Shown here in pieces: positions 43,902 to 48,750 of a DNA stretch of 64,000 bases. The notes beneath the pieces were generated by a model. The model made no database searches, was not told the origin of the DNA, and worked only from the letters and a program-made list of their open reading frames with translations. Made by a program: the position numbers and the translations under genes. Source of the stretch: Parvularcula lutaonensis (GTDB taxonomy: Bacteria > Pseudomonadota > Alphaproteobacteria > Caulobacterales > Parvularculaceae); contig NZ_BMXU01000001.1 in NCBI RefSeq assembly GCF_014651915.1, positions 558,001 to 622,000 on the forward strand. The letters are read 5' to 3'. Each line of letters begins with the position of its first letter. The stretch's first letter is position 1.

Positions 43902-44963
43902 TTGCGGAACGCCGTCATCGGCGGGACCAGCGCCCTTGCGCTCGTGGCCCTGATGGCATCGAAGGGCTCGTCGATCGCGGCCCTCTCGGGTGACGGTCTC
44001 GATCTCAATCCTGGCGCAATCTTGATGCGGAGCCTCGTCACCGGCACTGCGCCGGAGACGCAGGAATCGTCCCTCACTGACGTTCGGGCCCGTTCCGAGG
44101 CGGCGCTGGCCAAGCGTTTCGAGGAGCAGGGGCTCTCGGCTGATGGCGCGCATCAGGACGGCAAGGGCGAACGCTACGATGTCGGCGAAGACGGCGACTC
44201 GTCCGGCCACGCCAAGCGCGACGCAAACTTTGATCCTGACATGTTCGACCGGATCATGCAGGCCCTCGCCGATGCCGAGGCGGCCGCTGACACCGCGGGT
44301 GGTCTCGATTTGGGAAAATCGGCTTCGCCTCTTGTGCCTGCTGGTCTCGGTGGGCCGACGGGCGGGGACGGCACGTCCGATACGCCTGATGGCTCCTCCC
44401 GAGCAGGCGGCGACACAGGCTCGGCCGGTCCGATCGGCGGCGGCGTCGGTGGCGGTGTTCCTGTCGGCGGCGGCGGCACGCCTGGCGCGGTTCCAGGCGG
44501 AAATTCTCCCGTTCCCGGCGGAAATCCGGTTGACGATGATCCCGAGGCGGATACGCCGCCCGAAGGCGACAACCCTCCGGGCGACAACCCTCCGGGCGAC
44601 AACCCTCCGGGCGACAACCCTCCGGGCGACAACCCTCCGGGCGACAACCCTCCGGGCGACAACCCTCCGGGCGACAACCCTCCTGATTGCGAGAGCCCTG
44701 TCGCCGGCATGCCTGTCCCGACGGATGGCATCGACGGCACGCTGGCGGGCGAAGTGATGCCGAGCGCTGGCGGTTCAGGCAGCCCCAACGGCGCCGATGG
44801 CCAGCTGCCGAGCGACTGCAATGGCGATGAGCAGCCGGACGATCCTGACGGGCCTAACCCGCCGGGCGACAACCCGCCGGGTGGCGAGGTGCCGATCCCG
44901 GCGCCGTTCCTGCTGTTGCCAGCAGGTCTCGCGATGCTCCTGAGGAAGAGAAAGCGCGCCTAG
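43902..44963 (+). CDS. Exported repeat protein with GDNPP array and CTERM-like tail
   Basis: The predicted 353-residue protein starts at TTG 43902 (AAGG 4 bp upstream), since no ATG or GTG opens the frame. A signal-like start NAVIGGTSALALVALMASKG is followed by an acidic, Gly/Asp/Pro-rich region without recognisable domains. Eight perfect GDNPP repeats (44565-44684) come next, then a two-Cys segment, a further GDNPP, and a tail VPIPAPFLLLPAGLAMLLRK ending RKRA. The tail has the proline motif, hydrophobic helix and basic end of exosortase substrates. It sits between dnaG and yqeY on the opposite strand, with no family relation to either. Surface or matrix display is inferred. Confidence 0.65.
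   Translation: MRNAVIGGTSALALVALMASKGSSIAALSGDGLDLNPGAILMRSLVTGTAPETQESSLTDVRARSEAALAKRFEEQGLSADGAHQDGKGERYDVGEDGDSSGHAKRDANFDPDMFDRIMQALADAEAAADTAGGLDLGKSASPLVPAGLGGPTGGDGTSDTPDGSSRAGGDTGSAGPIGGGVGGGVPVGGGGTPGAVPGGNSPVPGGNPVDDDPEADTPPEGDNPPGDNPPGDNPPGDNPPGDNPPGDNPPGDNPPGDNPPDCESPVAGMPVPTDGIDGTLAGEVMPSAGGSGSPNGADGQLPSDCNGDEQPDDPDGPNPPGDNPPGGEVPIPAPFLLLPAGLAMLLRKRKRA
44565..44684 (+). repeat. 15-bp tandem array encoding (GDNPP)8
   Basis: Eight head-to-tail copies of GGCGACAACCCTCCG run without interruption; the last copy differs only at its final base. The same codons are used in every copy, which points to recent expansion by slippage. A related GDNPP using other proline codons occurs about 180 bp later and is outside the array. 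Confidence 0.95.
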
Positions 44964-47162: not shown

Positions 47163-47687
47163 TCAACCGCCCACCCGCTTCCAGTACATCTCTTCGAGCG
47201 GGGCGTAGTGGACCCAGAAGTCGCGCGCCTCGCAACCACTCACCAGGTCGACCAGCAGGTCGAGATGGGCGTGCCACCCTGCGGCCGCGCCCCAACGATG
47301 CTCGTCACGCACGAGCCTGGTGTGGAGGAGATGCAGGACGGTCCCGTCGCCATCCGGCGTCAGGGTGATCGTCACGTGGGTTGAAGCACCGCTTTCTTCC
47401 GGCCAGCTGAAGGCCAGGAGGCGCGGCGGGTCATAGGCCGTGATCGTGCCTTCAAAGGTGATCGGATCACCGCATCCCACCGTCTTCGGCGGAGGGGAAG
47501 CGGAAATTCTGCTATGGTCGAAGTCAAACACGACGGTGCCGCCGACCTCGTTTCCTGTCTCGCCTGCACAGAACCATCGCTTCCGCAGCGCAGGGTCAGT
47601 CAGGTATTCCCACACCCGTTCAGGCAGGGCAGGCAGTCGGCGCCGGATTTCGAGCTGGTCTTCCTCAAGCTGAACGTCCGTGCTCAT
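47163..47687 (-). CDS. SRPBCC (AHSA1-like) family protein
   Basis: The 174-residue protein starts with the strand LEIRRRLPALPERVWEYLTD, then ALRKRWFCAG, the conserved Trp of AHSA1-like START-fold proteins. FEGTITAYDPPRLLAFSWPE and GTVLHLLHTRL follow. Such proteins bind hydrophobic ligands, and many are paired with ArsR regulators as here. The gene start overlaps the end of the ArsR gene by 23 bp, so both are made from the same transcript. The function is unknown. Two ATG candidates exist further upstream, but ATG 47687 best fits the fold. Confidence 0.85.
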   Translation of the reverse strand: MSTDVQLEEDQLEIRRRLPALPERVWEYLTDPALRKRWFCAGETGNEVGGTVVFDFDHSRISASPPPKTVGCGDPITFEGTITAYDPPRLLAFSWPEESGASTHVTITLTPDGDGTVLHLLHTRLVRDEHRWGAAAGWHAHLDLLVDLVSGCEARDFWVHYAPLEEMYWKRVGG

Positions 47688-48015
47688 CGCTCTTCTCCTC
47701 CTTGAGCGCCTGCTCGAGGGCATAGTGAGCGCTGCTCCAGAAAACGCGGTACTTGTCGAGCCAGTCATGCGCCCGCTTCAGCCGGGCCGCATCGAGGGCG
47801 ATCATTTGCTGGCGGCCGTGCTTGCGCCTGCGCACCAGACCCGCCCGTTCAAGGACCTGCACATGTTTCGATGCGCCTGCGAGGCTCATCGAGAGCGGGG
47901 CGGCAAGGTCACTGACGCTGCGCTCCCCGAGGGTCAGCTCGGCCAGCATCGCCCGCCGGGACGGATCACTGAGGGCGCCAAAAGTGGCATCAAGATCGTT
48001 TAATTGCTCAACCAT
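47665..48015 (-). CDS. ArsR-family transcriptional regulator
   Basis: The 116-residue winged helix-turn-helix protein has LSDPSRRAMLAELTLGE in the first helices, VSDLAAPLSMSLAGASKHV in the recognition helix and RRRKHGRQQMIALDAARL in the wing. It lacks the cysteine metal-binding motif of metal-sensing ArsR proteins. Two perfect palindromes lie at and just upstream of its start, so autoregulation is likely. ATG 48015 lies within the first palindrome and only about one base after the predicted transcription start, which implies leaderless translation. A GTG at 48036 would add seven residues and lies inside the promoter. Confidence 0.88.
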   Translation of the reverse strand: MVEQLNDLDATFGALSDPSRRAMLAELTLGERSVSDLAAPLSMSLAGASKHVQVLERAGLVRRRKHGRQQMIALDAARLKRAHDWLDKYRVFWSSAHYALEQALKEEKSDEHGRSA

Positions 48016-48024
48016 AGGGTTGAG
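48007..48024. promoter_or_regulatory. Operator palindrome over the arsR-like start
   Basis: Perfect inverted repeat CTCAACC-ATAG-GGTTGAG covering the start codon and the base of the -10 box. Its core is nearly the same as the second palindrome, so both are probably bound by the ArsR protein. Confidence 0.75.
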
Positions 48025-48049
48025 TATATCGGCCACTCCAAAAAGTCAA
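48023..48049 (-). promoter_or_regulatory. Candidate promoter of the ArsR/SRPBCC operon
   Basis: On the minus strand TTGACT (48049-48044) and TATACT (48028-48023) are separated by 15 bp, slightly short of the usual 16-18. The start of transcription would be near 48016, directly before ATG 48015. The two operators overlap both elements. Confidence 0.55.
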
Positions 48050-48061
48050 CCAATAGGTTGA
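48046..48061. promoter_or_regulatory. Second operator palindrome, over the -35 region
   Basis: Perfect inverted repeat TCAACC-AATA-GGTTGA. Its half sites match those of the first palindrome, with centres 38 bp apart, placing the two dyads about 3.6 helical turns from each other. It also faces the divergent YbjN-like gene at 48127, which it may regulate. Confidence 0.72.
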
Positions 48062-48126: not shown

Positions 48127-48750
48127 ATGATCAGGACTTTCATCGCCGCGGCAACCGCGGCACTTCTTGCGACCTCGGCGCAGGCGCAAATCCCCGAACC
48201 GCTGGCCAGCACCAAGCTGCCAAATGTGGATCGCGCGACGCTGGTTCCGGTCCTTCAGCAGATGGGCTTGCGCCCCGAGACCGTGACGCTGGAGAGCGGC
48301 GAAGCGCTCGCCATCACCACGCCGAGCATGACTGTCATCCTGCGTCCGCGGGTCTGCAATCCGGACTGCGCAGGACTCTTCATGCTGTCGATCGTGCCGG
48401 ATTCCGGAACGGCGGATCAGATCAACGCCTACAATTCTTTCGTCCCCGGTTCGAAAGCCGTGCGTCTGCCGAACGGCTCCACCGCTATCAGCCGTTACCT
48501 CATCGCAGATTACGGGCTGATAGCAGGCTCGTTCCTCATCGACCTCCAGGTCTTCGCCAACACCGTCGGCCGCTGGCAGCAACGGAACTTCCCGATGGGC
48601 AGCAACGTCCAGTCGGTCTCGCTGACCGAGCCCGGCGAAAGCCAGTTCGACTCCGAGATGCAGGATCTCCTCGACGATGTTCTCGAGCGGCCCGAACTCT
48701 GGAGCCGGGAAGTCGGGCATAGCAAATTTGACGGGATCTTCCCGCAGTAG
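48127..48750 (+). CDS. Exported YbjN-like protein
   Basis: The 207-residue protein has a signal peptide (MIRTFIAAATAALLATSAQA, cleavage about AQA-QI). Its domain resembles the YbjN fold, with LVPVLQQMGLRPETVTLESG, a two-cysteine loop PRVCNPDCAGLFMLS, and NAYNSFVPGSKAVRL followed by SRYLIADYGLIAGSFLIDL. Overall layout and cysteine pair match the exported protein at 39198-39695, so they are probably paralogs acting in the periplasm. ATG 48127 has GGGAGG 6 bp upstream. It is divergent from the ArsR operon, across a promoter region with two operators. Confidence 0.75.
   Translation: MIRTFIAAATAALLATSAQAQIPEPLASTKLPNVDRATLVPVLQQMGLRPETVTLESGEALAITTPSMTVILRPRVCNPDCAGLFMLSIVPDSGTADQINAYNSFVPGSKAVRLPNGSTAISRYLIADYGLIAGSFLIDLQVFANTVGRWQQRNFPMGSNVQSVSLTEPGESQFDSEMQDLLDDVLERPELWSREVGHSKFDGIFPQ

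What the first reader, a model, noticed from the sequence alone, without database searches (positions are those of the whole stretch)
48007..48061. Twin ArsR palindromes over a promoter with a probably leaderless start
Two perfect palindromes with the same half-site (TCAACC/GGTTGA) flank a minus-strand promoter. One covers the -35 and one covers the -10/start region. The predicted transcription start falls at the ATG of the ArsR gene itself, implying translation without a leader. The second dyad also faces the divergent YbjN-like gene, so one repressor may control both directions.
Basis: partly seen in the sequence, partly recalled or inferred. Interest (0 to 1): 0.55.

Follow-up and report, generated by a model that had tools for sequence, protein, structure and literature searches.

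The report
Repressor operator built around start codon
A small ArsR-type repressor appears to bind a DNA palindrome centred exactly on its own start codon, so the same few bases probably serve as binding site, transcription start and first codons of the protein, and the same layout recurs in relatives from several bacterial phyla.

Summary
The two perfect TCAACC-N4-GGTTGA dyads are real. Genome-wide there are four exact sites; the other two lie inside coding sequence. They flank a minus-strand promoter, TTGACT-15-TATACT, whose -10 ends 7 nt before the arsR ATG at 48015. That ATG sits inside dyad 1, with the dyad axis directly before its A. Relatives strengthen this. In 260 homologs sampled by protein, taking the most upstream in-frame ATG without looking at dyads, 84 have a dyad with its axis exactly at that ATG. 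Other registers give 0-9, except 28 for one shifted by 6 nt; shuffled arms give a mean of 19. A -10-like hexamer sits 7 nt upstream in 43 of 84, a Shine-Dalgarno-like word in 1 of 84. Arms change on both sides while the ATG stays on the axis, so codons 2-3 follow the operator, and recognition-helix residues change with the arms. This supports autorepression of a leaderless arsR-AHSA1 operon. Shared control of the divergent gene is not supported: the nearest relative keeps both dyads without that gene, and it is not recognisably YbjN. No transcript end or protein binding was measured.

The parts
48008..48023 (.). Dyad 1, TCAACC-N4-GGTTGA; axis lies directly 5' of the arsR ATG, so the right half is codons 1-3
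48046..48061 (.). Dyad 2, same half-sites, axis 38 bp upstream of the ATG, overlapping the -35 hexamer
48044..48049 (-). -35 hexamer TTGACT (inferred)
   Evidence: homologs carry TTGAC at -34 to -38 of the ATG
48023..48028 (-). -10 hexamer TATACT (inferred), 7 nt before the ATG
48013..48015 (-). arsR ATG and predicted transcription start (A = +1)
   Evidence: first start after the upstream stop in P. mediterranea; M1 and V2 conserved
47665..48015 (-). arsR, 116 aa, HTH_20/HTH_5 winged helix, no cysteine; recognition helix residues 45-57
47163..47690 (-). AHSA1/SRPBCC gene, 175 aa, start overlaps the arsR end by 26 nt, with GGAGGAG upstream
   Evidence: AHSA1 in 88 of 102 downstream proteins of homologs

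Best explanation
An autorepressed, leaderless arsR-AHSA1 operon. ArsR dimers bind two copies of one dyad: dyad 2 over the -35 and dyad 1 centred on +1, blocking RNA polymerase. When the unknown inducer releases ArsR, transcription starts at the A of the ATG. ArsR is translated from a message without leader or Shine-Dalgarno, while AHSA1, with its own ribosome site, is made more freely. The right half of dyad 1 is also codons 1-3, so the operator dictates the protein's N-terminus. Shown: dyads, geometry, conservation, covariation, partner gene. Inferred: binding, repression, RNA 5' end, inducer release, relative translation.
For: Axis at the most upstream ATG in 84 of 260 homologs against 0-9 in other registers (28 at -6); arm permutation mean 19.1, maximum 31 in 2000 shuffles; eight perfect arm types. 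With any in-frame start, 109 of 278; 22 of 25 at 55% identity or more. -10-like hexamer 7 nt before the ATG in 43 of 84; Shine-Dalgarno word in 1 of 84 against 47 of 176 other homologs, and in 80 of 102 downstream genes. Left-arm base 5 is C with K/R50 in 94 of 94 and G with Q/L50 in 7 of 9; residue 50 lies in the modelled recognition helix. Second copy in 49 of 109, axis -38 to -42 in 44 of these. 0 of 165 window ORFs of 120 aa or more show the geometry. The downstream protein is AHSA1 in 88 of 102.
Against: No 5' end or binding was measured. The window's -35/-10 spacer is 15, below the usual 17. Homologs share ancestry: the tree-aware pair test had only 3 supported pairs and p = 1, so the helix-operator link is not proven independent of descent. 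169 of 278 homologs lack the exact register. Codon 2 was GTT in 93 of 93 Val cases, but those genes were chosen by dyad. Predicted AUG accessibility did not differ much between a leaderless and a 25-nt-leader transcript (0.65 against 0.60).
Confidence: 0.8

Rival explanations
1. The dyads are ArsR operators but the message has a leader from another upstream promoter, or translation starts at GTG 48036; overlap of dyad 1 with the ATG is incidental.
For: In-frame GTG at 48036; other homologs carry displaced dyads with starts further downstream; spacer of 15 in the window.
Against: The ATG register recurs in 84 of 260 homologs with -10 at a fixed gap; in P. mediterranea the ATG is the first start after the upstream stop; no Shine-Dalgarno word in 107 of 109.
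Confidence: 0.12
2. One ArsR dimer set controls both arsR-AHSA1 and the divergent secreted-protein gene at 48127.
For: Divergent arrangement; dyad 2 lies between the genes.
Against: Gene absent beside the conserved twin dyads in P. mediterranea; 0 of 19 relatives of that gene have the dyad upstream; plus-strand promoter no better than chance.
Confidence: 0.07
3. The dyads act in RNA, as a hairpin or attenuator over the start codon.
For: Dyad 2 scores as a terminator-like stem.
Against: If +1 is the ATG neither dyad is transcribed whole; arms covary with recognition-helix residues, which points to protein-DNA contact.
Confidence: 0.03

Closest known systems
AcuR-AcuI-DddL operon, Rhodobacter sphaeroides (PMC3017554, passages read)
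   Same: Autorepressor as first gene; 5' RACE puts the start at the AUG; no Shine-Dalgarno on the regulator, Shine-Dalgarno on the downstream genes; inverted repeat overlaps the promoter; layout reported in other taxa.
   Different: TetR family; by the passages the inverted repeat lies upstream, over the promoter, not centred on the start codon; one repeat, not two; acrylate inducer known.
NreA (CsoR/RcnR) nreAXY operon, Mesorhizobium (PMC12724321, passages read)
   Same: Leaderless, autorepressed, compact promoter-operator ending at the ATG.
   Different: Other repressor family; operator in the -35/-10 spacer; nickel inducer.
Rv2034 of Mycobacterium tuberculosis (PMC3338718, passages read)
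   Same: ArsR autorepressor, operon partner with a polyketide_cyc2 domain, palindrome with a 4-nt spacer, footprint -30 to +3 reaching the start codon.
   Different: Different half-site (CCGTAAGT); one palindrome, upstream of the start codon; leaderless start not discussed in the passages seen.
Cupriavidus metallidurans transcriptome (PMC7563307, passages read)
   Same: Lists arsR among leaderless messages.
   Different: Copper-exposure transcriptome; no operator geometry in the passages seen.
PY54 phage cI/cro (PMC4488713, passages read)
   Same: Leaderless repressor messages beginning at AUG.
   Different: Phage switch; operator not on the start codon in the passages seen.

Membership tests
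ArsR/SmtB winged-helix repressors | HTH domain and fold | tested here: met
   HTH_20 47.7 bits (cut-off 27), HTH_5 27.4 (22); model matches ArsR-family structures 3f6o, 2oqg, 7p6f
ArsR/SmtB metal sensors | Cysteine metal or sulfur site | tested here: not met
   No cysteine in the 116 aa, although NF033788 'metalloregulator' is above cut-off; His/Asp sites not tested
SdpR autorepressors | NF033789 cut-off | tested here: not met
   47.8 bits against 100
Leaderless mRNA | Transcript 5' end at the start codon | not testable with these tools
   No RNA data
Leaderless mRNA | -10 at 6-8 nt before ATG and no Shine-Dalgarno | tested here: met
   7 nt in the window; homologs
Autorepressor operon | Regulator binds its own promoter | tested here: inconclusive
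   Conserved dyads and helix covariation but no binding assay

The most novel reading that the evidence does not exclude
A widespread class of start-codon operators: in this ArsR-AHSA1 lineage the operator axis is locked to the initiation codon of a leaderless message. Operator specificity and the first codons of the repressor therefore evolve together, and the conserved Met-Val N-terminus is operator DNA rather than protein function. The co-varying helix residues (45, 46, 49, 50) would form a readable specificity code.
Probability: 0.6. Interest if true: 0.7.

Novelty: new variant of a known kind. Interest (0 to 1): 0.57.

Why it matters
Leaderless autorepressors are known one by one; here one geometry recurs in relatives from several phyla, with the operator doubling as coding sequence. 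It gives a testable account of why some repressors lack a leader, a way to correct start-codon annotation, and a set of naturally co-varied operator and recognition-helix pairs for reading ArsR DNA specificity.

Tried and rejected
Divergent control of the gene at 48127: rejected. RNA hairpin hiding the AUG as the reason for the layout: predicted accessibility hardly differs. YbjN label: no Pfam match even at E 10. Wider regulon in this genome: the other two exact sites are inside ORFs. Tree-aware test of helix-operator covariation: too few supported pairs. Strict promoter scan: none found; it allows spacers of 16-18 and this one is 15. Paper searches for the layout (listings only, apart from the passages named; PMC2823685 passages also read) showed none describing a dyad centred on an ArsR start codon.

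Full report
OBSERVATION. Both dyads are present and perfect at 48008-48023 and 48046-48061. The genome holds four exact copies; the two outside the window lie within ORFs. On the minus strand the order is: dyad 2, whose right half supplies most of -35 TTGACT; a 15-nt spacer; -10 TATACT; 7 nt; then ATG. The ATG is inside dyad 1, whose axis falls exactly before its A. The promoter pair scores better than 292 of 300 simple shuffles, but the stricter scan misses it because of the short spacer.

GENES. The 116-aa protein is an ArsR-type winged helix without cysteine. The model (mean pLDDT 91) has a helix at 45-57, which I take as the recognition helix from its place in the fold, and it resembles ArsR-family structures. 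The next gene, AHSA1/SRPBCC, overlaps the arsR end and has GGAGGAG before its ATG. P. mediterranea has the same pair (70% identical ArsR), both dyads in the same register, and no divergent gene.

SURVEY. Homologs were found by protein similarity alone. Of the places listed I read 50 of 73, 90 of 91, 30 of 37, 31 of 38, 31 of 49, 28 of 28 and 33 of 33, counted by hand from the listings; the ones not read were mostly weaker hits. Of 289 loci, 8 duplicates and 3 with late or short alignments were dropped, leaving 278. A 6-4-6 dyad with at least 5 of 6 paired arms and its axis at an in-frame start occurs in 109 of 278: 22 of 25 at 55% identity or more, 21 of 29 at 50-55%, 41 of 100 at 45-50%, 24 of 108 at 40-45% and 1 of 16 below 40% (identity to the better of two queries). 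Other registers gave 0-22, except 37 at -6.

LESS CIRCULAR TEST. Taking the most upstream in-frame ATG without looking at dyads (260 of 278 have one), 84 have the axis at the ATG. Registers from -14 to +14 otherwise give 0-9, except 28 at -6, largely a group of ATAAC...GTT-ATG operators where the start codon ends the right arm. Permuting right arms gives a mean of 19.1 and a maximum of 31; perfect dyads number 62 against a mean of 8.2. Eight perfect arm types occur (TCAACC, ATAACC, TTAACC, TTAAGC, ACAACC, TGAACC, TTAGGC, TTTCCC), so both arms change while the ATG stays put, and residues 2-3 change accordingly (MVE, MVM, MVK, MVN, MVV, MVQ, MLN, MPN, MGN).

PROMOTER AND TRANSLATION SIGNALS. In 73 such genes the base profile shows a TATATT-like -10 at -13 to -8 and TTGAC near -36; the best -10 ends 7 nt before ATG in 45 and 8 nt in 9. 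In the less circular set a -10-like hexamer at gap 7 is seen in 43 of 84, against 13 of 176 other homologs. A Shine-Dalgarno-like 4-mer precedes 2 of 109 arsR starts and 80 of 102 downstream ORFs, whose starts were picked mechanically.

SECOND DYAD. 49 of 109 have a second copy with 2 or fewer mismatches, 44 with its axis at -38 to -42; in most of these the right arm runs into TTGAC, the -35, and the TTGAC position shifts with the dyad. Exact TCAACCNNATGGTTGA occurs at 23 places in 289 alphaproteobacterial genomes; the reversed control pattern occurs in none. By my reading, 14 places are at an arsR ATG, 3 are the second dyad of an arsR, and 6 have no arsR within the locus.

WHO BINDS. Arm sequence and recognition helix covary: outer bases TC go with A/N (rarely E) at residue 46, TT with P46, AT with Q45-P46, AC with Q49; inner base C goes with K/R50 (94 of 94), G with Q or L50 (7 of 9, Fisher p about 2e-9, rows not independent). 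Among 172 homologs with T or C at the second arm base, residue 46 fits in 167. Descent is not excluded: the minimum is 12 changes of that arm base on a weak tree and the pair test is uninformative. The axis-at-start state itself changes at least 32 times on that tree, so it is gained or lost often, or the tree is poor.

PARTNER. 88 of 102 downstream proteins of axis-at-start genes match AHSA1; others include glyoxalase-like (7) and DUF899 (2). The inducer is unknown; absence of cysteine argues against thiol sensing.

TAXA. Named records with the register include Sphingomonas, Myxococcota, Verrucomicrobiia, Solirubrobacterales, Micromonospora, Nakamurella, Chloroflexia, Trueperaceae and Roseisolibacter; several are metagenome bins, so some placements may be contamination.

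VERDICT. What is new is the family-wide lock between operator axis and start codon. The kind of system (leaderless autorepressor) is known, for example AcuR (PMC3017554, passages) and NreA (PMC12724321, passages).

Noticed in passing
48127-48750 (+): Divergent gene encodes a protein with a signal-peptide-like start and no Pfam match; two further matches in the same genome, and matches in 21 of 62 family genomes counting this one.
   Followed up: partly
L028, L036-L038, L140, L141, L149, L160, L163, L178 and others: A second register: ATAAC-N4-GTT-ATG, the start codon ending the right arm, predicting a leader of about 6 nt.
   Followed up: partly
L095, L127, L170, L185: Homologs with one or two TTAAC-type dyads and a start further downstream.
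   Followed up: no
L112, L113: Exact TCAACCNNATGGTTGA with no arsR in the fetched locus.
   Followed up: no
43902-44963 (+): This ORF contains a repeated PPGDN motif.
   Followed up: no
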